This document shows positions 1 to 27,915 of a stretch of DNA of 64,000 nucleotides, in pieces. The notes beneath the pieces were generated by a model. The model was not told the origin of the DNA and did no database searches. It was given only the letters and a program-made list of their open reading frames with translations. The stretch is from positions 372,001-436,000 of the forward strand of contig NW_025062285.1 of the NCBI RefSeq assembly GCF_000002995.4, read 5' to 3'. The stretch's first letter is position 1; each line of letters begins with the position of its first letter. The stretch is from Brugia malayi. Lineage: Eukaryota > Nematoda > Chromadorea > Rhabditida > Onchocercidae. A program made the translations under genes and the position numbers.

Positions 1-2631
1 AAGGCTTGGATGCCACTATAGCATTAGAAGCAGCAGCGACAACAGCGCCAGCACCTGTTGATAATTTTGATGGACATTCAGATAAATTGTTAGCTTCTTG
101 GCACGCTCTAATTGCTGTTGGCCGCAACGATGATTGACAATTGCGACCAGCTGGTTTACGTGTTCCACGCCATACGCAACGTAACAAACGCATCTGCGAA
201 ATAGACGAAACTATTGAAATTAAATAATATGTAGCATATACATTATACGTTATTCACTCAGACTCTAAAAAATTTTTAATTTTCTTTTTTTTCAACACAA
301 ATATAGGCCAATACCTGCACTCCACCATCGCCGCATGTTCGGCTACATTGTCCCCAGACGGATGGTCTCCAATCAGCCGTACAGTTCACTGCAATTGCAT
401 TGCATTTGTCTTTTAAAAGTTAATTCATTTTTGTCAGCAAAAAAAAAGAAAAAAATGTGTAAAGTCAATTATATTTAAAGAGTATTTTACTTCAGCCAAG
501 ATTGGTTTTCTTTCTATCAACTAGGCTTATTTATTTTGTTGATAATTTCATATGAATGTCTCTAGGCTCAAGTATTTCCTATTCTTGTCCCCAGCAAATG
601 CTGAAAAGTACAAAAGTAACATTTGCTGATTGTCTTTTCTATCGAATGCATCCATTTCTGTAAGTTAAAATTCGGAAAATCATAAAAACTTTCCATTGTA
701 CTAATTCATTTGTTGAAACAAAATTTATCGAAGAATAACAAAACTTAGGCTCAAAGAAAATAAACTAAAACCTTAAATGAGCCAGAAACTAGTGTATTTA
801 GATTGGGACAGAGGAGAAAACAAATGCTAAAGTTGACATGAGACATGAGCATTCATTGATTTTCATAAATTGAAAAAGTGGCAAAACCAAGCCAAAGAAA
901 AAATGAAAAAAGATTGAGAAGGAATAGTTAAAGGCTCCATCTTTTCAAATATAATAGCAAATCGTTCTCTTTATTGGCCAAGGACAAGAAAGGATCTCAG
1001 ATATACATATATTTACTGCAAATAGCCTTGGCCCATTTGAAGTGAATGCTTGTTTAGCTTTTATAGTTGCGATGCTACGAACAATTGAATGCCATTAAGC
1101 TAAGCTTCATTTAAATTTATAAAATCAAATGCTTTCATTTATTTTTAAAATTATTCCTACTGTCTTCTTAATTCTTCCATTCTTTTCTTTAGCACATTTA
1201 TTAGCAATGAATTTAACACTTTTCTAAATTGTGGACATTTAGATATTTCTTAAACTTTAAGTTTCTAAGCAGATGTTTTGAAAAAGAAAAGACGGAAAAA
1301 ATATTTATCAGATTTAATTGGTTTTTTCTTTTTTCCTAAACAAATAATGAAAATTTAATTAAAAAGAAAAATGATTTTAAAAAGTTCAAAAATTTAATTT
1401 ATGCAGCACATTTCAACTCATTAGATTATTCATTTTAACTAATTAATTACAAAAATTATCGATAAATTGAATTGTTAAATTTTTGTCCTGTCAATATATG
1501 AAATATATTCCCGATTTGTTTCAGGTCACTTTCTTTTCCTGAATTCTATTTTAGTCCTTTTACCATAATGAATAAATCTGTGATCGAAAAAGACAACAAA
1601 GGAATAAATTATGAAGTGTATTTCAGGATAGATGCAGAGATGCATCAATCAGATTTTCCAAAATTTAGGATCAGCAAAAACTTGGAAATGAAATATTGAA
1701 AGTATTTGAAATTAAATTCGAACAAATTAAAAAAAAAAAACTACTTATAATTGGAGAAAAATTTCCACAGATCAACAAAATGTTCAAAGATTTATGAACC
1801 TAATTAACTTCCTAATTAATTTTTCAACTTATCGTACTGATAATTAATTTATCACTGATTTATTTTGAAAATGTTAATGAATTTTTTTTTGTTCTAATTA
1901 GACTAATTAATAACACATTTTAAAGATACTCTGAAATTGCTGTGATACACTCATTCCTAACTCTAATCAAAAACGAATTAAATGATACCATTGATGCATT
2001 CCTTTTTCACTTTTGGTCTACTTTCTCGATCACACAATTCAAATGGCGCATTTGTACCATTCTCATATGCGCACTTCACTTCACGCCTTTGCATGGATGT
2101 GGAATGTCGGATACAACGGGAAGATAAACACTGAAAATTAAAGAATTAATTAAATTAAAGCAAAAACAAATTGTTATTTATGAAATAATCACCAAAATAT
2201 TTAAAGAATATCTTAAATTTCTAATGAAAAATAGAATTGCTTTTTATCAATGTTTTATTCACTGATAATTAGTGCGAATAATTAAGAGTAACGTTAGGTT
2301 GAATTAATAGTTCATTGGGAATGATACCTCAGACCACGGTGATGCCTGCCACCGCGGGCAATGCGATGGAAGGCAACTTCTCGAGGAAGGTGGTCGCATC
2401 ACACCGAAACTTTCACACACGTCGTCATCCAGGTAGCCAACCGAACCTTGGTAACTAATCCGACATTTTAATTGTCTTACCTAAAAGTATTAATTAGAGC
2501 ATCTTAATTAGTCGCAAATTGATAGAAAGAAACAGAAATATGATTTGATCCAATCAATTTACCTGTGCTCGTCCTGGTTTCCCACATTCATAATGGGAAC
2601 ATTTTGACCATTCACCGGTAGCATAATCAAT
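1..2631 (-). CDS. madd-4: madd-4 TSP1 repeats 9 to 11 and C-terminal stretch, cut by window edge
   Basis: Exons are 2631-2563, 2480-2328, 2130-1989, 388-315 and 193 to beyond 1. TSP1-9 starts [17 protein letters not shown] and TSP1-10 [16 protein letters not shown]. Both have divergent CxxxxC openings without the O-fucose site, while TSP1-11 ([14 protein letters not shown]) is canonical. The donor at 1989 (G|GTATCA) was preferred over one 22 bases earlier because only it restores the frame CINVNCTADW across the next junction. The last visible part is Ala/Ser-rich ([15 protein letters not shown]) and still open at position 1, so the stop and the expected PLAC domain lie outside. Confidence 0.85.
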
Positions 2632-5600
2632 CTAAAATTGATATGTTAGCAAAGTTTGATTATCAACAAAATTATCAATATTGATTAGTTGAAATGTTTA
2701 CCTTAACATTGCCTGGTTCAGTCACTTCAGCTAATTTCTCCAACATTCGAATGTCATCGTTGTCTTTTAATGATTGTCGCACTTTCTGAAATGCAACTTC
2801 AGAATTTAAATCGCAACTGTTACAAAAATTTTTTCCAAATTTAAAAATTGAAATCTTTTTTTTTGAAAAAAAAAATAATTCCATATATTTTACATAAAAT
2901 CTAAAATAATAAAAAATATGATAAAAAATTTTGCAGCAAAAAAATTGCCCAAAATGAAAACTTGAAGAGAATATTAATATTACTAATTTGAAAATACCTG
3001 TATTAGTTGATGATCAACAGCAATCGGATCGTTCTCCAAATCATCATTCTCTATCATATTTTGATTTAACATTGAGCGAGAATCATTTACATTTCCATCC
3101 TGAAAAAATTAACAGATTTAATTTTAGGTCATTTCTTCAGTAATTTATTTTACAAATAAAATTTTTTAGGGTAAAAATTGAATATGACGGGAAGAAAGCA
3201 ATTACTTTATTTTCTCGTGACTTGAAACTTAACGTCACATTCCCCTGAATGCCATTAGCTATACACGCATATACGCCAGCATCTTCCATTCGGGCGTGAA
3301 AAATACGTAATGCACCATTTGATGATACTTTAATGTGCGCTAAATAAAATAAATCAAAGAATGAAACTCAAAGTAAAGTATTCCAGCATTTTGTTTCCTT
3401 TTCAATTCTCTAAGATTTCATTTTAATCATTCAATTTTCTGAAATTCTATAAATTCTACTCTGCGAATTTGTTTACAATAAAAATTACCATTGTTCGTAA
3501 TCTTTTGCCCATCTTTTGTCCAAGTAATTTTATTCTTTGCATAATTACGAACTGGGCATTTCACCTGAAAGTATACTTTGATTATTACTTCTATCCTTCA
3601 GATATCTTAGAAATAATCAAAAAATATAAGCTACAATTTTTCCTATTTATTTTCGCTTATTTATTTATTTTTTTTTTTTTTTTTTTTTTTGAAAAAAAAA
3701 TTCTTTCTGTAGAAAAAATAAATAATTCTTTCAAATGCTTGCATTTAAATTGCAGTGTTAATTGTTATTCGCATTTACTCTCGAAATAATTTCTAATTTG
3801 TCGCTTATTTTTCGTATACAGAAAGAATTTTTTTTTTCAAAATAAATAAATATACAACAAAAAAAAAATAAACAAAAAAATTGTAACTTATAGCTTATAT
3901 TTTGGTTGCGTCGTAATTTAAGAAATAATTTGCGACATTTCGAGCAATAATACATCCAATTAAAGCTAATTAAGTAATATGTCAAATTCAGTAATACTTC
4001 CAATTAAAGCTAATTAAGTAATATGTCAAATTCAGTAATACTTCCAATTAAAGCTAATTAAGTAATATGTCAAATTCAGTAATACTTCCAATTAAAGCTA
4101 ATTAAGTAATATGTCAAATTCAGTAATACTTCCAATTAAAGCTAATTAAGTAATATGTCAAATTCAGTAATACTTCCAATTAAAGCTAATTAAGTAATAT
4201 GTCAAATTCAGTAATACTTCCAATTAAAGCTAATTAAGTAATATGTCAAATTCAGTAATACTTCCAATTAAAGCTAATTAAGTAATATGTCAAATTCAGT
4301 AATACTTCCAATTAAAGCTAATTAAGTAATATGTCAAATTCAGTAATACTTCCAACCGATAGCAACGATAATATGAAAATCTCTTTTGCAGTGATTTGCA
4401 GTAAAGAATAATTTAACTGAGAAATAATTATCGAGCAGAAATACCTTCAGCGATGTGCCAACAAACAGCTTTGCACTGCCACCTATATTTAGTGTCAACT
4501 TTCGGCTATGTCCGTGCTGTGATGTCAAAGTTGACATCGGAGATGAAATCTCATCCTTTTCCGGAAACGTCGAATCAGCCAGGCTATTACACACACCTTC
4601 AAGTTTCACTAATAATCCTTCCTTCTTTTCATTTCATCTATTTTTGGTTATCAGATTATCTTCGACTTCTCATGCAGTACTTAAGGAATGAGCCATGCTA
4701 GGCTCATTTAACTATCCTATAGAGCCTTGTCTATTCTTGGCTTAGATTCGTTCATTTTTATTAGCTTGTTGCTATTTTGATTTGCATATAGACTGAATCA
4801 TTTTCAAATTTGATTGCTCTCTCTCTCTCCTTCTCTAATTTACCTAAGTCACAAAGTTGGACAGTTGGTGGCTTCTCGATATGACGGCATTGTATTGGAG
4901 GGTAAAAGTGTTTCAGTTGACCGTCAGCTACACGTTGTTCACAGGTCACTTCACGACGTTGCTCACCAGGACCGCAAGTTGTTGAACATTGACCCCAATT
5001 ACCAGTCTAAATTGAAATCTATCAAACAAATCTCTTAAAGCTAATTTTGAGAAATTTGGCTTTGAGTGAGCTAATTAGTGCTTCCATCCTTTTCCGATAA
5101 TTCGAGAAGACGCAACCTTCCATGCCGCAGGACAATCTACCAGGCCACACGCTTCGTTGCTGATTGGCTTTGGCTGTGGACACTGGCCATCTGGTAGAAT
5201 CAGTGTCGATTCCGCACCACCGGTCCGTGATATACGCCGTACGCAGCGTACCTGAATACTATGATATATTTGAGTGTCATTCATCTATCAGTTATAAGTA
5301 ATGAAAAGTTATGGAATAGACCAAAGTGAAGTACTTTGCAATTCATCTCAGAATTTGGGTGTGCAATAATATAGAATTAGTAAATTTATTGAGGTGGACA
5401 GGTGAACAAACCTTTCGAGTGCGTAAACCACCGCCGCAAGTGTGTGAACATTGTGACATCTCACCAATCTAGAAAAAATTAAATCTTAAATCGCAGAAAT
5501 TTTAATTTTTTCAATAAAAATTCAAATTTTTCCTATCTCTCACCAATCAGGTAAACAAAAGATTTAATTTGCTACGGTTTCTGTCCAGTCATTTACCAAC

Positions 5601-8600
5601 TCATAGCAACTTTGAATTTCAATAATTTATGTTTGAAAAAATATTATTAATTAGATTAAATATATTCTTGCAAACATTTTTAAAGAGTTATCAAATATTT
5701 TGTAGAGAAAAAAGGAATTAAAATTTATGAAAAGGACTTATGAAAAATAAAACTAACATCCCATTCCGGTGGACAAGGGTCATTATTGCAAGAACGTATC
5801 AAATCAACAGGGCGCTGTTTGGCATCACAAAATGACCATGCGACAGTGGTGCGTCGCTTGACATCGACACATCTAAGAGTGGAACGTTGCTTACCTAAAA
5901 TTAGAATTATTAAACTTTAGCCAAAGTCCAATAAATGATGTGTTACATTATGATCTATGTATTTGCTATCACTGATAGATTGATTATGTTTCTTATCAGT
6001 AGTAATGCCTGTATCACTGTCCACCAGTCTGGTCCTCTTTGCCCTTGTAAAATTTCAAAGTTGTATTATTAGTCTTACATGAACGTTCAGTAAAGACATA
6101 ATTTCAGGTCAATTATTTCTTATCACTGATGATTACCATCTAATCTTACATGTCAATATATTTTTAAAACTTAAAAGTGTCTGAAATGAATAGGAAAGTA
6201 ACCTCCAAGACAAGAAGCAGAGCAAACTGTCCAGTCACCGTAATCCCATTTGAATGAACGTGTGGGTGTCAACGATCGTTCACGTACAGGTAGCTCATTA
6301 TCTGCGTCATTTAATGCACACTGCTGCACTTGACACGGTTGAAATGCATTTGGTTTTGGCGTACCTTAAATTTCTCTTCGTATGATGAAGTGACACTGTC
6401 CTGTCCTCACCTGTCGTGACATTGTCCTCACCTGTCGAAGTATTTCATTTACTGAAGGGAACGAATTAAATTCAGTTATTCTAACCTTCACATTCATAGT
6501 CTGGCAGTTTAATAATATTTGAGGTGATTCCTTGTAAAGCTATGCATTCAACCGTACGTGTAGCTACGCCGGGACCACACGTTGCTGAGCATGGACCCCA
6601 TTGACCCGGGAAAAACCTGAAAATTTCACTCCAATTTCACTTTCGACGACTGCTTTATATATTCAGTTATAATTGATTTCTCCTAAATCAGTTAATCAGA
6701 CCTTATCTTAGTGAAATGAAAATTTTGAAATAAATGAGAAAAGAAAATGGGAGAAAGAGAGAAGGCAGAAATGAACTAATAGCGGTAGTGAATTTCAATT
6801 TTCCAAATAGCGAAACAATTTTAAATTCCATTTCTTATGTTTATAAACTTTCCTTAATAAGCAACTTATTGTTTTAGTTATTCTTATAAAAATATAATTG
6901 AAAGCAAAAAGATTTATTAAAAATTTTTGGAAAAATAAAAGTTTAATATTAATGTCTCTTTTCATAAATTTTCATTTAATTATGATACCTTTTCCGAAAC
7001 TAAACTTTGCTTAAAAAAAAGAAAAAAACAACAAAAATAGAACATTTAATTCTTTTCACTTATTCAAAAAACAACTTATTTATTGCTAATAAATTTAAAT
7101 ATTCAATTCATATTTTAAATTACACTTCTTTTTTTAATTTATTATTTATTTGTCAAAAAAGTTCAAATAATTTGCACTTTCTGTGTAATGCACAGCGTCA
7201 TTAAAATGAAAGAAAAAAAGGATTGTATTAAGGAAAGCAGCGAGTTACCGTGGTTGTGTACCAATTGCACCATTACTACCGCCGGCACCAACATCAGTAC
7301 CTGAACCCATGCTGCCACTGCCACCCATTAGATTGTCAAATGTCGAAGCGGCGAAACTGTCGTGCTGGATGCGCTGTTCGTCATTCCAGGCCTTAGCAAA
7401 TGGTGCTTGGGCCACGTAGCTGAAAGTTAGATCATTTGATGAACCCAATTTTAAAATTTTACTCTAATATTTTTTTTAAAAAAGTCCAATTTTAAAGTTT
7501 TAATTTCAGCTTAATAAATTTAAATCAAAAAAATAATAAACAAAATACAATGATGTGAGAGTCAACATGTATTGAAGAGACTTAATTCAATAAAAAAATA
7601 AAATCTCTGTTGTTGTACAGAAATTATTTATTAATTATCAGCAATCATTCTGAATTTTTAATTATTTTTAAGAAGAAATTAATTTTGAGAGTTTTTTTGC
7701 AGAAATCACATAAATCATAAAAAATTATGGTAATTCTAATGTTTAAATTAAGTTTAGATTTATGAAAATTTTCTGCATAGTTTTTAATTTTAAATTTTAA
7801 AAATTTTGTATAATCATATTTGAAATGCTACTTAAAATTGTTGAAAATGTTTTGGATTGTTCTTATGATCGCATAATAAGTAAAGTAAGTTAGAAAATAT
7901 TTAAAAAATTAAAATCCTATAACAAAATGATGTATGACTGTTTTTATAAAATTGCATATTTTTCTTTTTTTTTTGCGCAGAATTTAATTAAAAATTAAAA
8001 TTTGCAAAAACTGATAAAAGAATAAGTAATTCTTTTGGAATTCTATTTAAAAAAATAAAATTTTAGAATTTCTTTCAGGTCAAAATTTCAGGTCAGGAAA
8101 GAAAGACTTAGCGAAATTTATCAAAGCAATAAGAGCAAATGATTGAAAAGTTTAAATAACTTTTTCAATTTGCTATTCTATTGTTTGTACAAATAAAGAG
8201 CAAAATTATTTATTTTATTTGTTTGTATCACAGCAAAATATTTATTCGGTCTAATGGGTATTGCCGGGATAATACAACGGGGAGAATATTAAGTATTATT
8301 AATCATTCATACAAATCATACTCTTGAACTGATAAGATAGGAGAATTTACCTATTCAGTTTTACCTGACTGATGAGATAGAAGAATTTACCTATTCAGTT
8401 TTACTTGACTGATAAGATAGGAGAATTTACCTATTCAGTTTTACCTGACTGATAAGATAGGAGAACTTACCTATTCAGTTTTACCTGATTGATAAGATGA
8501 GAGGATTTACGCTTATTCAATTTTACCTGAAGGGCAGATAATTACTTTGAAATAATAAGTTATATTGAAGAAACTAATGTAGAAGTAATCATTGACCGAT

Positions 8601-11600
8601 TTCCTAGATCGCAAAGATAATTGCGATAAAAAAACATACTGTTAGTATTATCAGTTAGTGTTATCAGTGTAATTATTGGTTTTTACTGATGAGCGAAATA
8701 GAAGAAATTGTACTATTCAACAGCTATTATTATGATTTTTGATTAAAAAAACAAACAAATATTGCATTTTAGTGATTGAATAAATTAAAAAATTAGATGA
8801 AAATTTCTAAGCAATCATTTCGAATGGCACAAATGTCACATATTTGTCATTCGAGAATACAAATAAAATATTCTTAATTCCTTTTTTCCGGAAGTTTCGC
8901 ATAATTTCGTTTTTATTCTAAATTTAAATGAATAATAGTTTTTCTCTTTCCGTTAATCTTTAATTATGTGGAAACAAAAGTTCTCCCTCATAGTAAATAG
9001 TATTTATTAGAATTAGTAAAATTATCTGAGATAAAGCGGAAGGCTTCTTCCTCCCTTCTTATCCTTATAATACATTTCCGGAATGAAATTAATTGCTTTT
9101 ATTGTTGATCACTTAATTGTTCGCCATTTCTTATTGTTGTAGGAAATTTCTAAAATCTTTTCAATAAGGAAACGAAAGAAGCCCACTTCAATAGATGATG
9201 GCCGTTAACATTCAAAGTAATTGCTCCTTTGGTGATTGTAGAAAATTTACATTTTCAATAATACCTCTCTTTTCCACTCTTTCTCTTTCTCCCTCTCTCT
9301 CTCCTCTCTCCCTTCAAATTTCAAATTATAGTCTGCATTATGCACTTTACTTTACATTTTCGGACTGATCTCTTTCATTTGACCATTAAAGCTATCACTT
9401 TGCTCTTATGCTTTTATCAGAAACATTCCAACTGATAAGGATGTGATAGTTATGCCATATTCACTGTTATCTTTTAATCAAATTAAGTTTAACGGAGAAA
9501 CTTCCAGAGATAATTTGTTTTATTTGTAATCATTCTGGATAATTACTCAATTATTTGTTATTGTCTCAGTGCCATCAGATTTTCAAGACTTTTCCTCCCG
9601 AAATTCCGGGAATTTCCTTGATAAACTGTCTCAGAGTTTGCGGCCATATGATATCAGTTTTGAATTTTAGATAAGACAAGCATCATTGTCTCGTAACACT
9701 TCAGTTTAACACTGTAAATATAATTATTTTAAAATCTTACAAAAATTACATCTAATTAGTAAAGGAAGAAAAATTCGGAGGAAAATTGATTTTTAATTTC
9801 ATATTAAATTTATTGCCTAAAGATATAAGTAATTTAAATGATTAATTTATAGAAAAATACATAAATAACTTTTACGTATTTAAAATTTCTCTCTTTCTTA
9901 ACTATTAAAATTTAATTAAAATTCCATACGATAAAAATAAAATTCTGCATCCGAAAAAAATGTAACAAAGTTTTAAAGAAGAAGAAATCACAATATCGAA
10001 TTTTGCATTGAATTTTTTTTTTTTTTTTGGATCGCTTTTTTTGCATAAATATTTGATAAAATTTATTTTATAAAACAGTTTGAATGAAACAACGAATTTG
10101 CGGAATATAATTCAATTCCATTTATTAATTCAGTGATAATAAATGTGATTAACTGTTGAGAACAGTGATAATGATCAATGATCAGTGATCAATGACATAG
10201 GTCAAATATGTGACATTGCATCTCCCTTCATTCTTGCATTGTTGAACTAATAAAGCTTACACAGTTTATTATATTTAATTAAATTATGATTTCCCTTTAA
10301 CTTTATTAATTCAAATTTAGTTTATACGTCTGACGGTGTGTATATTATGCATTGCCATATGATCTACGTGTGACACGTGTATAATATGTTAACGTATATT
10401 GTACATTACATATTGTCTACGTGTGACACGTGTATAATATGTTAACGTATATTGTGCATTACATATTGTCTACGTGTGACACGTGTATAATATGTTAACG
10501 TATATTGTGCATTACATATTGTCTACGTGTGACACGTGTATAATATGTTAACGTATATTGTACATTACATATTGTCTACGTGTGACACGTGTATAATATG
10601 TTAACGTATATTGTACATTACATATTGTCTACGTGTGACACGTGTAGTACTTAATAGCATAGCAATCTCACAGATAAGTATAATACTGCAAACGTTCATT
10701 CAATTATGTAAAGGTAACGATGAAATTATTACTCCCAAAACAGTATATAATTAGCATAAAGGTTAAATTTCTTTTTTAAACGATTTCTTATTTTATATTT
10801 TTGATTAATTAAAAGTAAGAAAGAAAGGAAAAAAGAGGTAAACTAACAAATTATCATCCGCACGGACATATTCCGCAAGCATCCATATGCCAAGTAGACG
10901 TAACACCATTATCATCATTTTATCATTGTAACATTCAAATTGTCCGAAATACGTGAGCATTTCAGGATAAGTAAGGCTTTTAGCACACTTTAAGGATGGC
11001 TGTTTAAGGCTTGGCTAGACATTTCGTATGTAACAATGGCCAAACAAATATGAAAGCATTGCGAGAAACAACATTTAACTCTTTAAAGTTAGCCTAAGGC
11101 GTGGCTTCTCCTACTTTACTAGTACAGTGGTAGTAATTAGCAGTATGATAAAAGAATATTAGCATGAAGGATGGAAATACTACCAGCACTAGCACCAGGA
11201 CCACCAGCACCAGGACCGCTGCCAAGCATTCTTCCCCGCCTCTTCTGGGCAGTAATGGCGGAAAGTGGCGGCGCTTCTTGTCTTCTTTCTATCGAATTTC
11301 AACCCGTCACATTCCTCTTCATTCCATGCTGAGCCAAACCACTATTTACAATTGCCCATATTGCATGGTGGGATGATGTTTTGATGGAAGAGAATTCGGG
11401 AAATTGCAAATCCGAATGATTGATGCCATTAATCTCGGGTAGTCAGACCTACCCGAAATTAATGCCTGGATTATGATAGCATACAATGAATAGTTAAAGT
11501 AGCATTATAGTAAGAGTATCATAAAGCACAAAGTATGTTATAAACGGTAATTTATTATTGCTCAGTGCCATTTGTCAGTCGAATGAATGGATGGGAAATG

Positions 11601-13433
11601 AATTGAAATTTTTGAAGAATGCAAATAAAACTAAAATATTACTAAAAGATTTATGAAGGTAGAAAGGAACGTACTCTTTAAATAATAGCACAAACAATTT
11701 TAATAGAAAAAGAAATGGGAATATATTTCATTTCAAATTTTGTGTTTTATTCAAAAATATTAATTACTACTTTGTTTATTTCCTTTTATTTGCTATGCTA
11801 TAAGAAATGACATTTTACATCAGATTCAAAAATAAAACTGAATTTTGCTATAAATTTCATTATTAAAAGGAATTTAAATCTAAAATAAATTTGTTTACTT
11901 TGCTAAAAAAGTGCAATGATGAATTGTTAATTAAAAACAAAACAAATTAAAAATGTTTAATTTGATTGCACATCAAATTAAATAAATAACTTAAAAAAAA
12001 TTTCATTGTTTATTCAATTGAATTAAAATTTTTTACAGAAAGATATTAAAATTCCTCAAACAGAAAATATTATATTCATCCATAAAACTGATTATTTCAG
12101 TCGTTGCATATTTGCATGCACGCGTTCAAATATGCATGCAAATGAGTGCACGATGATTTCTAGCATTATGCTAAAGTTAAAGCAAATATTTATACTTAAA
12201 GAATAACTTAACATTTGTCATTTGTCATCATGAAATTTCACTTACAGTGGTATTTCATTCAGATATTCAGCATACTAAGCAATATCAAATTTTGAATGCT
12301 TTTCTTTCTTAATTAAATTACTTAATTAATGGAAATGTAATGAGAGATTTTTATTTAAAACAATCCGTTTTATTCTAATCGCCGAGATTTTCAGCTTGAT
12401 CCGGTGGAGTTAACCGGTAGAGAATATGAGTGGAAGTAAAACTGTGATTCAGTTTGTTAATTTGTAGTAAAATTCCATCTTTAGATAATCAAAAAGTATG
12501 CGATCTTTCCAAAATTTAATACTTTGTCTCACTTATCCGTTTTTTTTTTTTTAACAGAACTGAAAAGCGCATCATTTAAATCACAAAACTAAAACTTATA
12601 TTTCTAAATTAAGAAAAAAAAAAAAAAACGAATTGCTGAATTTTCCTAAATGCGCATCTGATCAACAAAATGTAAATTCATTTTTAAATTAAAAAATGAG
12701 CTGTAGAAATTTTCTTGAAAGATACTTGTAAAAGCATGCATGGCTCACATATGTCAAATTTTCAGATATTTGAAAAGTAAAACAATTCGTCAAAAATCGA
12801 AAACAACGACAATTCCAAGCAACTTGACTGCTATAAGTAAATCTCCCGAGGGAAATGAAGTGTCGGAGGGAAGAGAATTCGAAAATTTCATAAAATATAT
12901 ATAACATAAAAAATCGATAAAACAAATATTAGGAATTTAATGTTAGGTAATTACTTTATAAATGAAGGTAAGAAATGTGGTAGTAATAATCGAATAAGTT
13001 TGAAAGATCTTTTTTTCTGATTTTCCTTTTGCTACGAACACTTATCAAATTTGAAATGTTGAAGGAAAAACTAACAGTCTGCTACTTTAGACATTTAAAT
13101 TATCTCTGAAATTGTTAGAAGAAACATTTTTTTAGTTTTAATATTTTATTTTTGTTTGTTTATCTCTGAAAAATGTTTCTCACTTTTTTCTCATTTTTGT
13201 TGTTAATTGTTAAATTATTTTTTTTTTTTAAAAAAAGTGATAAACAATTGTGAAATGAAACATCTGAATGACGTGGTAATACGTAAAATGTGCGTCAATA
13301 TTAGCTAAAATAGAATCTTATGATTTTCTTCTTCACACTTCAAATTTGACAAATCATTTAAGTACTTACAAAATTTTCATTTCTTATTTTAGGGAATTTT
13401 AATTTTTACTATTTTTTTTTGCAATGATTTTCT

Positions 13434-13470
<37 letters not shown>

Positions 13471-16400
13471 AAGAAAAAAGATTTTTGTTGCAGAAAATTT
13501 TAATATTTTTGAGAGAATAAAAGCATAAATTACAGCAAATCGATAGAAAAGCTTAACTATCAGAGAATTAAAAAAAGGATTAAAGCAAAGTAACGAAAGT
13601 ATTTACTCTGTGATAGCTCTGACTACCTTATAAAACTTTGAAATCTATTGGAAATTTAAGTGGCACATCGCTTTCTGCATATATTACTCCCTTGAGTGCT
13701 TATTTCTTAAAATTTTAATATTTAATCTTAAAATTTTGAAATATAATCATTAATTAAGCTAAAACTTTTTTTCTTTTTTTGATTAATGTTCACAACGAAT
13801 TCTGTAAAACACTACTTGCCAATATGATTTATCATTTGTCTGAAATAAGCGCCTGCAAGTACCGCCAAATTTCGCATTTAATAATAAAAAGCAAATTAAG
13901 AAATTAGTTCGATGATATTAAACGATTTGATAAATATTTTATTGGAAAATTTAATGGAAAAAAAAGTAGCGATGGATTTAAATATGGCATTCATTGAAAT
14001 AATTTAAAAAATGATTAGAAAAGTAGATGGATGATATTAGGACTAGGCCTTAAATCCAAGATGGATGTTAAGAGTAAAGGAAGTTAGGCCTTAATCTGGT
14101 ACACTGTTATAAAAGATTCTCTGCGGATTGATGCTAATAAGACGAAAAGTCTTAATAATTTTAAAATATAAAAACAGCAGACACTTTAGTGAGATTTATC
14201 ATACATTGAATGAACAGTGAATTTATTAAAGACGAAATTTCCTCCATTTATAAATTTTTTTTTTTAACTTTTTATCAACTTTTTATCGATTGAAAAAATA
14301 AAAAAGCTTATTTAGCACATTTAAAAAGTTAAAGAATGTATCAAATACTTACCGAAAACGATTGAATGAAATGTCAGAAGGTCCAACAATTGCTGAAATT
14401 GAAATTTTATCATTATTGAACTGCTGGATGACTAACAATTAAAGGACTAACAATAGCAAAAAGAACCACAAATATTGATTTGGCGCTGATGTCGCATAGA
14501 TCAATTACTATTAACCAACAAAAATTATTCCTAGTGAATTATTGTACTTCTGCTAATGCCAGAAGAAAATTGCTACCAATTTCTAATAATTCAGAAATCA
14601 ATGGTAGAGTGTTAATTTAATTCAAATATTTTATATAAAAGGAAGAGGTAAGAATTTTACAGTTTTATCTTCAAAGTTCAAAGTTCATTGTAAATTGCTG
14701 GTATGACAGTTTTACTAAAATAAACTTTTGAAAACTAATTATTCCTTACGTAGTTTACTTTTCTATTTCTATTTCTTTTCTTTTTCGAATAAATGATTGA
14801 AAAAATGTTTTGAAATGATTTATTTTTATTGAAATACTTTCAATCAACGAATGAAAGCATTCACAACTTTTTGTTTTAACTTAGCGAAACAGTTATTTCG
14901 CTTTTTACAAACAGAAATTTTATTTAGTTTAGGAAAAAAGAAAAACTTAGCAATTATTACTTTTATTATCACTGTTAGATTACAATGATTATGATTGCTA
15001 TTATGATTACTGCTATTATTGTTATAATTACTGTTACTATCATTATTATCATTACTAAAGAAACTTTCCGTTTTACAGCATCTCATAAAAATTATTTGAA
15101 CAGAATTATTTGTAAATAAAAAGCTAAAAAATTTAAATATAATTTGCAGACATAATCGATCCTTTTTTTTTAATTAAAGTAACAAATATTTGATGAAATT
15201 ATAGCTTTGCTTAAAGTTATCAGTTATCTCTTATCAGTATTTAATGCAGTAATTCTGTACGGAGAGAATACCAGCAATATCGATGCTTAAGGTTCATCGA
15301 GAACTCTCAGAATTATTTCTATTATAGCATCCGTTCTGGTTTTTACAATTAGATTCCTAAAAAAGAAATCGGTTGCAATCTTCCGGGTCTCTCAAGAAAT
15401 TTAGAAAAGAAAAATTTTAAATATAATTCTAAAATTAGAAAATTTTTTCCCTTTTGTCTCATTCATATTTTTCTAACATTTTTTAAAATTTATTTCAATT
15501 AGTATTTTAAAATTTTGACAAAATCTCTAATTTTTGAACTTAGCTAAATTTTTGCTAATACATATATTTCCCATAAATCCTACATGCATGTATGCATGCA
15601 TGCATGCCTGCATGCGAAAAGCATTAGCAAGCATTCTTGAAACAATTTTCCAAGTAAATTTGAAGAAAGCGGAATAAGCATAAAAGAACTTTTAATTTCC
15701 AAATAATCCTTTTTTTTTTCTCTTTCAAAGGAATTTTTTTTTCTTTTTTCTCAAACGAATTATTCGCGTCAGTTTGCTTTGTTCAAATTTATTCATTCAA
15801 AAGAAGAAAATTTCATTCATTCAAAAAATCGAAGTCTTTCTTTTTGCTAATAATTTTTTGGCCATTACTAGCAGTCATTCATTCATTCCTTCTTCCTTAA
15901 CCCAACAAATCCTGGACGACCTTATCACTTCCAAGTACTGATATCATATCACAAGAAGACAATGATTAATACATTGAATTGTTGTAAACTATTTTGAGAT
16001 TTTAATTTTATTTTTTAATTGTTCAATAGTTTAGTTAAAGGAAGCACATAAAAATGTTTAATTTCTCGTCAAATAATTCAAATAATCTTTCATCTTTTAT
16101 TAATTGAAAAAAAGAAAGAAAAGAAAATTATTTCTATTCAATTGCTATAATCGTCGTAGCATAATTTCTAATTTTTAATTCAAAAAAGAAATATAGGAAA
16201 CGTTAAATTTTAATATTTATTTTAATACAAAAAAGAATAGCGACGAAATATGAAAGAACAAATTTATGCAAATTTCAGCTTTTTCTTAAAACTTATCTAA
16301 GCATTCTTTGATAAATGATCATCTCATTTTGTTCGTTTGAGTATGTCAAAGAATGCGAATAAATTTTTGAAATTGTCTGGCAATGAGCAATTTTTTCTTT

Positions 16401-19400
16401 CAAAAATTATACTATTTTGTGATTTGTCATTTAATTTAATTAAATTTAATTTTACGACCATTACGAATGTGTCATTAGCATATTTCAACGAGCATTAATA
16501 AAGTTTTTTAAGCCTTATCCCAGATTTTAGTATATTAATAAAGCCTTATCCCAGATTTTAGTATATTGTAATCTATGTGAAAGTATTTCGCAGTAATAAA
16601 TGTAAAATTGCACAGAGTGAAGGAATTCTTGAGGGATAATCAGATCGGAAGATTTTATTTTTAATAAAAATAGTAATAATAAAAAAAAAAAATAAAAAAG
16701 ATCAACGGGTCAAAAAGGTCTTTTTGACCTAAAATAATATTTTTGGGAATAATCGATTTATAAAAAACAAACAAATACTTCTTTTGATACTCTAGTAATA
16801 TCTATGTTCGTGAAAAAAGGCGGTTTTTTGTATTGAATTTTATTTATTTATTTTTTATAATCTTTGCACTAAGCAGCTAGGTAAATTAGTATCGTCTAGG
16901 TAAATTAACATCGTCTAGGTAAATTAACATCGTCTAGGTAAATTAACATCAAAAATTTATCAAATTTTCAGCAATTTTTGCTATTTGTTTTTTTAAAATG
17001 TATTTGATTTGAAATTGTTAATGTTATTATAATTGCAGATATTTGCAAAATTATCGATATTCATATTGCTAACAGAATCATTTGCATACTGAGATATGGA
17101 AGATATATTTTTGATTTAGCATAATTAATTAGTTAATAAGGATTCTAAATGGATTTTAAATTTATTACCCATATCTAATGTGTCTTTGCTTAAAACTAAC
17201 AGTGAAGACAGTGAAGCATTAACTGATATTATCACATGAACAATTCATATTGTTACTATTATTACTGTTAATGTCGTTATTATTGTGTTGTCATCATTAT
17301 TGTCATTAATATCATTGTGTTCCTTTTCTAATAATAACTTTGCTTATTGAAAATTTTATTTGTTACAAATAGGCGATGTGAAAATGGCACACAAAAATTT
17401 GAATCTCAAAAAATACGAATTTATCAAATTGTGCCAATTAGCTAATTAGAAGTATTAAGTAATTAACAATCTAATTAAGTGTGTGACATAGCTTATATTA
17501 GCATCTTAAAAAGCTGAATTAGACATTAAGTTAGCTTAATGGTTAATTTTTTTAAGTAAATATTTTAACCCTAAATAAATAATTGCATTAATACCAGCAG
17601 CTATTGAGATTCTTCTTGAATCATTTGAAATTCATTAAATTTCAAAAAAGACTAACAATCGTAGAATTCACTTGGACAGGTGATACCGGTATAGCACGGT
17701 TGACTGTCATCCGGTCGATCAGTATCCTTGCATGCGTAATCATCAATCCGTTCACCTTCTTGTTGACACTCAACCTGACACGATCGGAGTTGTAAGCTGA
17801 TTTTTTGTATTTTTTGTTTTTTGTTCTTGGGTAAATTATTGATTGATTGATTAATTAATTAATTAATTACTGAGTTTGTCTTTAATTTCAACTCTCTAAA
17901 GGTATTGCTTTTACTTCATTTCATCTGTATAATTTAAGTTTATTTTATTCCATTTGTTCCATCTTCAAATTATGCATCCATAAATGATAAATATTATCTT
18001 TTAATTTGATTACTCAAAAACGTTTACCTGTCTTGTCCGGTAACCTTTACCACACGTAACGGAACACGAACTCCAATCTCCCTTTTCCCATTTCGGGCAA
18101 CTTTTCCGATTGCATTTCCTGCTTATTGCCTGAAAGAAAAAAACAAAAGAATTCTAAAACAAGAAACTGAACATTCCAAATAGTTTAAACTTTTTCTTGT
18201 AACCAAACGAATTTCGATAGGAATTACAACTTATGTTCAATTAATGAATTCCGTTTAGTTATTTTAATCTAAAGTTCACTTTTCAATACGTTACTATGGT
18301 CTGAGAAAGGACAGAAAGCGTGGCCACAACGTGTTAAAGCGTAAAATTAAGTTGTCACTGTTATTGTGACAAGTCATATTGTTACACATCATTGTCGTAT
18401 TTGTCACATTATGGAATCGATCGGAAATTTTGTTTATCATAAAGAAAACAGTTGCAAAAGATTCAAATATTAATAATTCATTTGAAAATTTCAATTATTT
18501 TCCCTATAACTATCGATTTAAACTAAGATATATTTAAATTTAAATTAATTATAGATGGTGGATGATTGCTTCTTTCACATCCTTCCAACTTTTCTGTATC
18601 ATACCGGTCGATGGGTTTGCCAGCAGTACTGATCATCTACTTTCCGGTTTTCCACAACAATTCCGCTTGTATCGTTGGAACTTTCAACGCAGTACACCTT
18701 TCTAGTCTGATGTCCGCCATCACAGGATGCTGTACATTCGGACCATTTTCCGGTCATCCATCTAAGACAGAAAATCTTCCGAATAATTTTACTCTTAAAC
18801 ATTTTCAAAACTAAAACAAAAAAAGATTACAAAACAAACATATGAAAAGTAATATGTACGATAGCAAGAATCAATGCTTAAATTGCTTATAATTTATAAT
18901 TTAACATTAAATTTTCAAAATGCAAATCAACAAAAATTGAAATTTTTTTTTTTGCTGCGAATTCATTGACTCAATTAGTACATATTACTTAATGAAGCAA
19001 TTTTGCATTTGCTGCATGTTAGTGCATGACTTACTGCATTCCAAGGAAGTAATACAGGTTAATAGCAAAGGTATGCAATGCTTAAATATAAATTATTCAT
19101 TGATTTTTTGCATTCTTTGATGTTTTAGAAAATTCAATGTTAATTATTAAAAAGGTAGTAAGAAACAAAAGTGTATGAAATTAATTTGAATTTTTGTCTC
19201 TCAGTAGAATTTAACCTAATTTGAAATTTCTCTTGCAATCCGATCCATTTGAAACAAATTTTATGAATTTCTTAATTAAATCAAAACATCAAATTTGGCA
19301 TTAACACAAAATTAAATTTAGTAGCATTCTTCTTTCATTATTTATTTCATTTTATTGGTTTAAATCCTTTGTATATTACCAGTTGATCATATCATAAAGC

Positions 19401-22400: not shown

Positions 22401-25400
22401 ATAGGATATTTAATTGAGAAACGGTGGGAAATTCAATTAAGTTAGAGTTTACAATTTATAGCTGCAAATAGTAGAAGGTAATTTTAAAAAGTCTAAATTT
22501 TTGCAAAACCATTTTGGAAGTGCATTAATGGCATTTATAATGCGAATAATAAAATTTTACATTTTGCTAGTGAAGAAGTGAAGGATTTCGTTAGGAGTAA
22601 ACTTTTCCTGAAATTTATTCAAACGTAAATTTTGAATGCATCATTGGGTAGCATTTTGAAAGTGAAATGTTTCATGCAAAAGAGTGAATGAAGGAAATAA
22701 ATTTGCTAAATGACCGTAAAAATTGAACAATGATTGAAAGGAATTTGTTTTAACTTTTTGGAATTTTACTTAAAAACTCGAAATGAATTTGAGAAACCGG
22801 AAGAGACAGTCTTCGTTTCCTGAAGAAAAAGAGGGAAATCATTTTTTTTTTAAATTATTCTCTTTGTTTCTAAATGCTAATTTGATCATTTTTGCAGATC
22901 ATTTTGTATTTATCATTATTAACAGTAAAATTATTTTATTGCATTAATTCTACTTTAATCACAAATTGAGAGGCAAAAAGATTAATTTATATTTTGAATT
23001 ATTTTGAGGAAACTTCATCAAAACTTTATTTATGTTTGATCGTCGACCGTTTTCTCTTATGAAATATCGTTTTTTCCGCTTTTTCGAATTGAATTTATGT
23101 AATTTGTTCCTAAATCCGACTATGCATTTGTTACATATCGTATTACATACTTCATTCTCTCACGTTAATTATCAGGTAATATTCCGGTGAAGTTTATTTC
23201 CCACATCGGAAATACAGATTTTGCTATAAATGGCCTTCTCTTTCATTCCTTTTAAAAATTAATAGAACCGGAATGTGTCCAGTAAATGAACCATGTGCTA
23301 ATAGGGTGAGAAAAATGAATCCTTTTGGGCTGCAAAATTTTTCTAACAAAAGAAAGACGTGAAGAAGTGATCAAAGAGGACGGAATTTTGACGTGAAAAG
23401 ATAAAATGATATAACTCTGTCCACTCATTTGTCATTTTGCTTATTTGTTAGGTCAAAAGAGAAGAAGAAAGCAGCAAGTAATATAGGAAGGAGAATGACC
23501 AACCAAGAAGTGTCAACCTCATTTGCATAATTGTAAAGCCAAGGTCACTCATTAATAGGTCTACAAAAACCATTCAAAGTTGTAAATTAAATTGAAGCAT
23601 TCATGAAATTTCCGGTTTTCAGAATTTCTCTAATGCGATGCAATGGCCAAAATTGTTTACATTTATATAACTAATATCATTTGTTTCATTGTTGAATGCT
23701 TATTAATTGATTTTTTTTTTCTGCAAATAATTCCAATCTGATTTATCGATTGATTGGTAGATCACTGCATAAGTATCTTCTAAGATAAGCAAATTAATGA
23801 TTGTTGTTTCAGATTTCCATAACTTTATTTTTATTTTTTTTTTTTGCTTTTTAAAAAACTGATGAAAGAGAGAGAAGGAAGTGGAGAAAAAAGAAAAAGC
23901 GATAATTGGTGAATATTAGAGGTTGTATTTTCAAAGAATAAATAAAATGTTGAAAGACTGAGAAGAAATGAGTAAGCAGTTAATATAAGTTAAAAGAAAT
24001 TTAAATTTTAAAATCTGTAAATCTTATAGAAATCCCATAATTGACCAAATAACTAAAAGCATACTGTGATGGACAAACGATATGTGGACATTTCTCGACC
24101 AGTGGACGTGGTCGAGGCTGGTCAGCACAAAGTCGTTCCGGCACCACTCGTTCATTCCGCACATTTTGGCATACTGATACTGACACTCGATAAGCTGAAG
24201 TAAGGAACTCTCCGTGTCCATAAAGTGCTCATCAGTTTGTCACATACATAATAGGACTCGAAATAAAACTTAAGGTATTACTTTATTAATTACTTGAAAT
24301 AAAACTTAAGGTATTACTTCATTAATTATAAGTAAGAAGTAAAGATTAGTTCTATTTCATCAAATCTTTTGGAGAGTTTCCATGCGTCTTAACACTATAA
24401 CAAATAGATTTCAGTTAAATGAACTTACCATTCGGTCCGCAAGTTGTGTCGCAAGGTGAGAAGTGTTTCGTGTCTTTCCACTGGAATATTGTACTCCGAC
24501 AAGTTTCACCCGTGCCGCCACATATTCCGCAAAGGTCGTAGCGAGCGTTCGACTGCACAATGCCGTCGCAACCGACATGCTCAAACGGAATGAGTAATTA
24601 GCTGATAGGATCAAATGAGTGATTAGCTGATAGGATCAAGTGAGTGATTAGCTGATAGGATCAAATGAGTGATTAGCTGATAGGATCAAGTGAGTGATTA
24701 GCTGATAGGATCAAATGAGTGATTAGTTGATAGGATCAAATGAGTGATTAGTTGATAGGATCAAATGAGTGATTAGCTGATAAGATCAAGTGAGTGATTA
24801 GCTAGTGAGATCAATCAGACCACTCAAAAACAGTTCAATTTCAAGTTTTTATGATTTGATAGGATAAACTGCGACCTGACAAATGCCATTCACACAAATA
24901 GATTTATTGTATCCTTCGATGTGACACGCACTGCCATCAGCCATTTTTCCTAATTTCTTCTCTTCACCAGTTTTCAGGGAACGACACACCACGATACACT
25001 TCAATAATAAGCAAATTTGAACTTCAAAAGAAAAGCAAATTTCAATAATAAAATTGTGAGATAACAACATTATCCATACTACCATTTCTGTTTTTTATAA
25101 AATTGAAATATTTATTCAAAGAATTCTTTTTTTTTTTTTTTTTTTTTGGTAATTATAATCTGATAATGTTGCTGCCATTACTACTTTTTAAATAAAATAC
25201 AACCAAAGATATGGAATTAATAAGATTGCTGAATTGAAGAGCGCTATTTACCTGGTAGCTACTCTCGACTGGCACCCATTTCTGTGACAACAATTTAGGA
25301 TTGTTAGCAATGACATTTAACTCTGAGCAACGTTCCTCCTTAGAATGAATTGAGGAAGTGTTGTTACATTGCTGAAATATTTTTGGTTATAATGTCGCAG

Positions 25401-26075: not shown

Positions 26076-27529
26076 CTGTAAAATTTTACCTTATTAGTCT
26101 ATATGAAATTTTAATTTTTTCCACATGAAAAGAAAGATTTTCATTATCATAACTTTTTTTTGAAATTGATAATTGAATTATTAAAATAATATAAAGTAAT
26201 AAATTAAATTATTTTAAATGAAACAATTGTAATTTGTATTAGTCTGAAAGTGTTCTTTACATTTTATTAATTTTTCGAATTTTTATCTTAAAATTACAAG
26301 CAATTTCCATAAATTTCTACTTTTATGAAACATATTGAATAAATTTGATTATGTAATAAAAACAAAAAATAAAAAAATAGAATTTATAATAAAATTACTT
26401 AAATTTGAATTTATATGATAAATTCATTTACTTTCTTAATTTGCTTTCTTTTTTCAGTGCAAATTTATTGAGCAAAATGAAAATAAAAAGAAACGGAAAT
26501 TGAAAAAGAAATATAAAAAAATTTTCCAAATAATATTTCTCTTTTTGTTTTCTTTGTATATAATTTATATTTAAGTATTACTGAGAAAAAGGATTCATTC
26601 ATTTAATATTAATATCCCTCTGAAAGTGAAAAAACATTGAAAAGTTTTTTATTTATTTCCTTTGTTTTAAATTCAATAATAAAAGAAAAAGAAGCATTTT
26701 GCATTGGAATGGAAAGGCAATTTTCTTTCCTAAATTTTGTTTATTTGACAAACTTCCAATTTTTTTATTTTTTTCTTTTTTTTAAAAAAAAAAAAAAAAA
26801 AAACATCAAAATGATTGATGAAAAAAAATAAAAAATGAAATAAGCATACACGCAAATATATACAAATCCAATATTTTTTGCATTACCAAACTGCCTATAA
26901 CAATCAATTTTATTTTTTCTCTGTCTATTTCTCTCCCTCTCTTTTCCTCTCTCTCTCTCCCTCTCCATCTCTTTTAGAAAGAAAGAAAAGGATAATAAAA
27001 AGAAATGCTATCAAAATTTCGCAGAAAAAAGCAAAATTATCAAAAGATTTTAATTAAACTAAGAAAATAATTCTCCTAATTTTCTCTTTTGGAATAAATT
27101 CATCAGTGATAAGCATCCTCTGATAACAGATAATCTATAAGTGATAGTATTGTATTTAAAAAGAGAACAGATTCTAATTCAGACTGATTAAAAATTAATT
27201 GTGGCATAGAATATACGTTTATGCCTCTTTAAAAGCGTTGTAAAATAAATTTTAATTAATTGCTAAGCATTTTAATTAATTACTAAGCATTTGTTTCGAT
27301 GATAAAAAATGTTATAATTGCAATAAAGGAATGAATAAATTAAAAGAAATTAATGATAGTGAAGTCATTGTTTATATTTTAAATAGTTTCAAATATATAA
27401 TATATCTGATAAGTAATATTTCACCGCGCTGTGTCTCTTCCATTTTAATATTATCTCGCTGAATTATCAATATTTCTTGTATCTTTCATCCCATAATCAC
27501 ACAAATTTTACACAATTACAACAAATTGT

Positions 27530-27915
27530 ATCAATAAACATAATTCAACTTTACCTGTATCAATAAACATAATTCAACTTTACCTGTATCAATAAACATA
27601 ATTCAACTTTACCTGTATCAATAAACATAATTCAACTTTACCTGTATCAATAAACATAATTCAACTTTACCTGTATCAATAAACATAATTCAACTTTACC
27701 TGTATCAATAAACATAATTCAACTTTACCTGTATCAATAAACATAATTCAACTTTACCTGTATCAATAAACATAATTCAACTTTACCTGTATCAATAAAC
27801 ATAATTCAACTTTACCTGTATCGATAAACATAATTCAACTTTACCTGTATCAATAAACATAATTCAACTTTACCTAAATCAATAAACATAATTCAACTTT
27901 ACCTGTATCAATAAA
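27530..27915. repeat. 29-bp minisatellite, about 13 copies
   Basis: Unit ATCAATAAACATAATTCAAC plus TTTACCTGT. Thirteen nearly identical copies. On the minus strand every junction reads ACAGGTAAAG, a strong 5' splice site (CAG|GTAAAG). It lies upstream of the first recognised madd-4 exon, probably in its first intron or promoter region. Confidence 0.95.

What the first reader, a model, noticed from the sequence alone, without database searches (positions are those of the whole stretch)
10848..10918. Signal-peptide exon inside the largest madd-4 intron implies a second secreted isoform
The exon was not suggested by any domain match. It appears as a minus-strand ATG followed by a hydrophobic leader with a plausible cleavage site, and its donor leaves two bases, which is the phase required by the exon at 7419. 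The product would begin with the Gly/Ser linker and TSP1-5 and lack TSP1-1 to 4 and the cysteine-rich module. C. elegans madd-4 has short forms from an internal promoter with distinct synaptic roles, so this would show the arrangement is old within nematodes.
Basis: partly seen in the sequence, partly recalled or inferred. Interest (0 to 1): 0.75.

Follow-up and report, generated by a model that had tools for sequence, protein, structure and literature searches.

The report
Start exon for short synapse-organizer isoform
A small exon inside an intron of a parasitic worm's madd-4 gene very probably gives the gene a second start with its own secretion signal, an arrangement known from C. elegans, where the short form decides which receptors gather at nerve-muscle contacts.

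Summary
On the minus strand, 10918-10848 encodes [23 protein letters not shown] plus two bases and joins exon 7419-7249 in frame. The decisive evidence is one relative. Loa loa protein P0002 (A0A1I7VID5) starts MVSRLFGLWMFMEYVVAVDDNF and continues into the same downstream protein. This leader scores 63 at the exon; the next best place in 64 kb scores 34, and the best of 340 shuffled sequences 39. The two leaders share 15 of 22 columns, with one whole-codon gap and the same junction residue, F.

The modelled product has 7 TSP1 repeats and an Ig domain, like C. elegans MADD-4S, but no PLAC domain was found. The nearest mapped upstream exon does not join 7419 in frame; a candidate 40-nt exon (14392-14353) would restore it, leaving the leader in a 6.9-kb intron. 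A perfect UNC-3/EBF (COE) site, one of 97 in the 86.8-Mb genome, lies 1.9 kb upstream.

The arrangement is known from C. elegans and from Bursaphelenchus xylophilus cDNAs, so this is a new filarial member of a known kind. No transcript could be tested, and the signal-peptide reading rests on simple rules.

The parts
10848..10918 (-). First coding exon of the short isoform: leader [23 protein letters not shown] plus 2 nt (TT); probable signal peptide with V-R-A as -3 to -1; initiator possibly the Met at 10909
   Evidence: homologous Loa loa leader; only one match in own genome for 10830-11000
10840..10847 (-). Donor GTTAGTTT of the leader exon (phase 2)
   Evidence: the same GTTAGTTT donor ends the gene's exon 5894-5758
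7249..7419 (-). First exon shared by long and short forms ([13 protein letters not shown]... plus Gly/Ser linker), acceptor ACTTTCAG
6486..6616 (-).
6203..6364 (-). Shared exon, TSP1 region
5758..5894 (-). Shared exon, TSP1 region
5412..5468 (-). Shared exon, TSP1 region
5117..5251 (-). Shared exon, TSP1 region
4844..5006 (-). Shared exon, TSP1 region
4445..4596 (-). Shared exon, linker before the Ig domain
3206..3564 (-). Two shared exons (3564-3489 and 3339-3206) with the Ig domain
1989..3099 (-). Shared exons 3099-2998, 2785-2702, 2631-2563, 2480-2328, 2130-1989: linker and TSP1 region
1..388 (-). Shared exons 388-315 and 193 to beyond the window end (stop codon ends 89 bases outside, read in L009)
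17657..17774 (-). Long-form exon ending the fourth TSP1 ([39 protein letters not shown] plus 1 nt); with this donor it cannot join 7419 in frame
14353..14392 (-). Candidate 40-nt long-form exon (S)[12 protein letters not shown](R); acceptor ATTTCAG, donor GTAAGT; restores the frame into 7419
   Evidence: Ascaris P0007 has a linker at the same position
12844..12853 (.). Perfect UNC-3/EBF (COE) site TCCCGAGGGA, 1.9 kb upstream of the leader ATG
11468..11473 (-). TAATCC (UNC-30/PITX-type site), 555 bp upstream of the leader ATG; such sites are not more frequent here than chance
11100..11460 (.). GC-rich block (45% against 27% for the intron), only one match in own genome; candidate promoter or 5' UTR region

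Best explanation
The exon is the alternative first coding exon of a short, secreted MADD-4 (Punctin) isoform in a filarial nematode close to Brugia pahangi. A promoter inside the intron upstream of exon 7419 (inferred) starts a transcript whose first coding exon supplies a signal peptide (inferred from simple rules). It is spliced at 10848|7419 onto the shared exons, giving about 760 residues: a short mature N-terminus (DDNFYVAQAPF...), a Gly/Ser-rich linker, 7 TSP1 repeats and one Ig domain. The long form's first TSP1 repeats and cysteine-rich module are left out. By analogy with C. elegans (not shown here), the short form would act at GABAergic nerve-muscle synapses and the long form at cholinergic ones, with promoter choice setting the balance. 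The exon, its frame and its conservation in Loa loa are shown; transcript, promoter, secretion and function are inferred.
For: Exon, donor, acceptor and phase are as described. Loa loa P0002 starts with a homologous leader joined at the same codon: 15 of 22 columns identical, one whole-codon gap, junction residue F in both; score 63 against a maximum of 39 in 40 plus 300 shuffles. One match only in its genome. The product has 7 TSP1_ADAMTS stretches plus Ig, as C. elegans MADD-4S has 7 TSP-1, Ig and PLAC (PMC9083331). C. elegans madd-4B has its own first exon, ATG and promoter (PMC11385328). B. xylophilus has madd-4A and madd-4B cDNAs with predicted signal peptides (PMC9427778). Some other short nematode models begin with hydrophobic leaders, e.g. 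P0010, P0016, P0018, P0021, P0046. An exact COE site, 97 in the genome, lies 1.9 kb upstream, and the genome has an EBF/COE gene.
Against: No transcript evidence. Of six filarial database proteins fetched (P0001-P0004, P0006, P0008) only P0002 carries the leader; four start elsewhere and P0008 is partial and begins beyond it. The spirurid relatives P0005 (Thelazia) and P0017 (Dracunculus) also lack it, as do other short nematode models such as P0012, P0015, P0028 and P0038. P0002 is itself probably a gene prediction (not verified). The hydrophobic core is modest, especially in Loa and from the 10909 start, and the 10909 start did not pass my own rule set. The six acceptor-like sites between 11470 and 11019 are weak, the nearest about 100 bp upstream. 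The region search for leader relatives returned only P0001, by its shared part. Leaders of five more distant nematodes do not align with this one (scores 10-17). No trained signal-peptide predictor was available. No PLAC domain was found.
Confidence: 0.85

Rival explanations
1. Chance: an open stretch of intron that happens to read as a hydrophobic leader with a donor in the right phase.
For: Judged on the leader alone, 7 of 60 shuffled introns yield something comparable, and its hydrophobic core is modest.
Against: The Loa loa leader fused to the same exon matches this spot at score 63, with a maximum of 39 in 340 shuffles; the gap is a whole codon and the junction residue is the same.
Confidence: 0.04
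2. Conserved non-coding DNA: the stretch is a regulatory element of the intron whose sequence conservation makes a leader-like reading in two species.
For: A GC-rich block and a COE site lie upstream; only one relative with the leader was available, and only as protein.
Against: ATG, open frame, donor phase and general hydrophobic pattern are kept while 7 of 22 columns differ, and the one gap is in frame.
Confidence: 0.07
3. The exon is an internal exon of the long form rather than a first exon.
For: The frame is open upstream to 11014.
Against: With the stated ends, inserting it after 17657 or after the candidate exon 14353 breaks the frame; other acceptors upstream were not tested in this way. 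It would put a hydrophobic stretch in the middle of a secreted protein, and the Loa model begins with it.
Confidence: 0.04

Closest known systems
C. elegans MADD-4B / MADD-4S (Punctin short isoform)
   Same: Own first exon with ATG inside the madd-4 gene, alternative promoter, product equal to the C-terminal part of the long form with 7 TSP1 and an Ig domain (PMC11385328 and PMC9083331, passages read).
   Different: Filarial species; no PLAC domain found in the modelled C-terminus; expression and function untested; TAATCC sites no denser than chance.
Bursaphelenchus xylophilus Bxy-madd-4B (MT769320)
   Same: Short cDNA with predicted signal peptide beside a long form; both promoter regions were cloned (PMC9427778, passages read).
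Loa loa A0A1I7VID5 (P0002)
   Same: Homologous leader, same junction, 84% identity over the whole product.
   Different: One extra codon before DDN, shorter Gly/Ser linker; listed only as an Ig-like domain-containing protein.

Membership tests
MADD-4S/MADD-4B short isoform | Separate first exon with its own start codon inside the madd-4 gene | tested here: met
   By sequence; conserved in Loa loa. Not by transcript
MADD-4S/MADD-4B short isoform | Leader works as a signal peptide | tested here: inconclusive
   Rule set passed from starts 10918 and 10915, not 10909; modest hydrophobic core; no trained predictor or assay available
MADD-4S/MADD-4B short isoform | In-frame join to the C-terminal half: 7 TSP1 repeats and an Ig domain | tested here: met
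MADD-4S/MADD-4B short isoform | PLAC domain at the C-terminus, as described for C. elegans | tested here: inconclusive
   No PLAC Pfam hit in the modelled product and no match to one cysteine pattern in the gene region or 8 kb downstream; an alternative 3' exon is not excluded
MADD-4S/MADD-4B short isoform | Transcribed from an internal promoter | not testable with these tools
   Only indirect: GC block and exact COE site
MADD-4S/MADD-4B short isoform | Secreted by motor neurons, positions GABA-A receptors | not testable with these tools
   Known for C. elegans only (PMC11385328, PMC9083331, passages read)

The most novel reading that the evidence does not exclude
The internal promoter and its wiring are conserved too: a filarial UNC-3/EBF factor drives the short isoform through the perfect COE site at 12844-12853, so the promoter-choice code that sorts acetylcholine from GABA receptors in C. 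elegans also operates in filarial motor neurons.
Probability: 0.3. Interest if true: 0.55.

Novelty: new member of a known kind. Interest (0 to 1): 0.42.

Why it matters
It extends the two-promoter design of madd-4 to filarial worms. It also points to an exon that four of the six filarial database proteins fetched lack (P0001, P0003, P0004, P0006; P0008 is partial), so existing models probably start the short protein in the wrong place. Together with the COE site it makes it testable whether the isoform code for cholinergic versus GABAergic synapses is shared across nematodes, including parasites whose nerve-muscle receptors are drug targets (the last point recalled, not looked up).

Tried and rejected
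Chance leader: rejected on the Loa match. Direct long-form splice 17657|7419: rejected, it reads into a stop; other donors in that exon were not tested by script. Leader as internal exon with the stated ends: frame broken. UNC-30/PITX sites: 2 TAATCC in the 3.4-kb candidate region against 1.75-2.1 expected, so no support. B. pahangi P0001 start (MFYQFC): a guessed back-translation was not found in the searched stretch. Genome search with the 22-residue Loa leader gave no candidates, not even the known place, so it says nothing. The leader-region search of the protein database scored 1 of 25 candidates, P0001 through the shared part, and missed the known relative P0002. Long-form search: among the 120 listed of 195 hits, filarial proteins cover at most 24% of the 460 residues searched, so no filarial long-form protein was seen in the list. 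Rfam: no hits in 7000-15000. Literature: madd-4 with Brugia 0 papers, punctin with filarial 0, MADD-4 with Ascaris 1 review not opened. I fetched 31 of the 91 proteins. In the alignment the row P0012 was cut at the wrong repeat and was not used.

Full report
What is there. The window lies at G000:C2:372001-436000 in an 86.8-Mb assembly. Its first 26 kb carry, on the minus strand, a gene whose short-form product is 96% identical to a Brugia pahangi protein (P0001), so the host is a filarial nematode of or near the genus Brugia; the species is not established. I built the shared part of the gene from splice sites and open frames: exons 7419-7249 down to a last exon whose stop codon ends 89 bases beyond the window edge (L009). 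The upstream long-form exons were read by eye.

The exon. Minus strand 10918-10848 reads [23 protein letters not shown] plus TT, followed by GTTAGTTT; joined to 7419 it reads on in frame through a Phe codon. Donors beginning GTTAG end three other exons of this gene. By a simple rule set the leader is the only such locus listed in the 6.9-kb intron, but shuffled introns give one in 7 of 60 trials, and the rule set passes the starts 10918 and 10915, not 10909. Its hydrophobic core is modest: best 9-residue mean 2.4 from 10918, 1.8 from 10909 and 1.8 in Loa, against 3.5 in Panagrellus and 2.7 in Pristionchus. These features alone are weak.

Conservation. A protein search with the predicted short form returned 91 proteins, of which I fetched 31. 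Loa loa P0002 covers 100% of the query at 84% identity and starts MVSRLFGLWMFMEYVVAVDDNFYVAQAPF. Over all six frames of the 64-kb window its first 22 residues hit the claimed exon with score 63; the next place scores 34 and the best of 40 shuffled windows 39. In 300 shuffles of the intron the mean is 28.5 and the maximum 39. Fifteen of 22 aligned columns are identical, with one whole-codon gap. The Loa protein starts at the residue matching the fourth Met, so 10909 is an alternative start.

Results on the other side. Of six filarial proteins fetched only P0002 has the leader: P0001 starts MFYQFC, P0003 MSKSFFS (which looks like read-through of the acceptor), P0004 MVNAPF, P0006 further in, and P0008 is partial and begins beyond it. 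Thelazia P0005 and Dracunculus P0017 lack it too. The 16 members of the P0001 cluster could not be viewed, so a Brugia record with the leader may exist.

Wider relatives. Several short nematode models begin, by eye, with hydrophobic leaders before the homologous region: Panagrellus P0010, Aphelenchoides besseyi P0016, Steinernema glaseri P0018, Strongyloides papillosus P0021, Pristionchus P0046. Others of similar length do not, e.g. P0012, P0015, P0028, P0038. The five leaders do not align with this one (scores 10-17 against 69 for Loa), so homology of the exon itself is shown only for Loa.

The long form. The exon ending the fourth TSP1 (17774-17657) leaves one base; joined directly to 7419 it hits a stop. 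A scan for exons that would restore the frame gave 111 candidates. The best by a combined score of splice sites and similarity to an Ascaris linker is 14392-14353, with ATTTCAG and GTAAGT, reading [14 protein letters not shown] before YVAQAPF; a longer version sharing its donor ranks second. On splice sites and frame alone 0.03 of 300 shuffled introns yield such a site. Ascaris P0007 has a linker at the same position ending TIDRYRYVAQAPF. I take this as a likely but unproven long-form exon. With its stated ends the leader exon cannot sit in the long form.

The product. The short form has 7 TSP1_ADAMTS stretches and an Ig domain. The review PMC9083331 (passages read) gives C. elegans MADD-4S as 7 TSP-1 repeats, an Ig-like C2 domain and a PLAC domain; no PLAC was found here. 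[quoted passage not shown]

Promoter signs. Between 11100 and 11460 GC is 45% against 27% for the intron; the block has one match in the genome, and 7000-15000 has no Rfam match. The intron holds the window's only exact COE site, TCCCGAGGGA at 12844-12853; 18 rows, both strands counted, match with at most one mismatch over the whole window. The exact pattern occurs 97 times in the 86.8-Mb genome, against 45 for the reversed control pattern, so about 0.004 are expected in the 3.4 kb between the candidate exon and the leader; shuffles give 0.003-0.007. TCCCNNGGGA as the UNC-3 site is printed in PMC5498135 (passages read); PMC12776094 prints a shorter form and PMC6057746 a looser one (passages read). 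The genome has a COE/EBF DNA-binding domain gene. I tested two motifs and only this one stood out; TAATCC did not (2 seen, about 2 expected). The surrounding 301 bases have one match in the genome.

Known or new. The kind is known from C. elegans, and a second lineage from B. xylophilus, where cDNAs for 1125 and 723 residues both carry predicted signal peptides and both promoter regions were cloned (PMC9427778, passages read). Searches for madd-4 with Brugia and punctin with filarial found no paper in the held library. What is added here is the exon in a filarial worm, its conservation with Loa loa, a likely extra long-form exon and a candidate UNC-3 site.

Verdict. The exon is very probably real and the start of a short isoform (0.85). 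It is a new member of a known kind, of moderate interest.

Noticed in passing
window 14353-14392, minus strand: Candidate 40-nt exon that the long form needs to reach exon 7419 in frame; not mentioned in the finding.
   Followed up: partly
window 12844-12853: Perfect palindromic COE (UNC-3/EBF) site, one of 97 in the genome, in the intron upstream of the leader exon.
   Followed up: partly
P0001, P0003, P0004, P0006 (database proteins): Filarial protein models of this locus start at different, probably wrong places and lack the leader; none of the filarial proteins listed joins the long-form N-terminus to the shared part.
   Followed up: partly
L009 5418-5488, minus strand: tRNA-Gly (gcc) gene about 2.5 kb beyond the window's low end, downstream of madd-4.
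   Followed up: no
window 3948-4355, 8328-8530, 10340-10646, 24589-24803, 27527-27915: Tandem arrays of 25-53 bp units, 90-99% matching, in introns of this gene and nearby; one (10340-10646) lies about 200 bases downstream of the leader exon.
   Followed up: no
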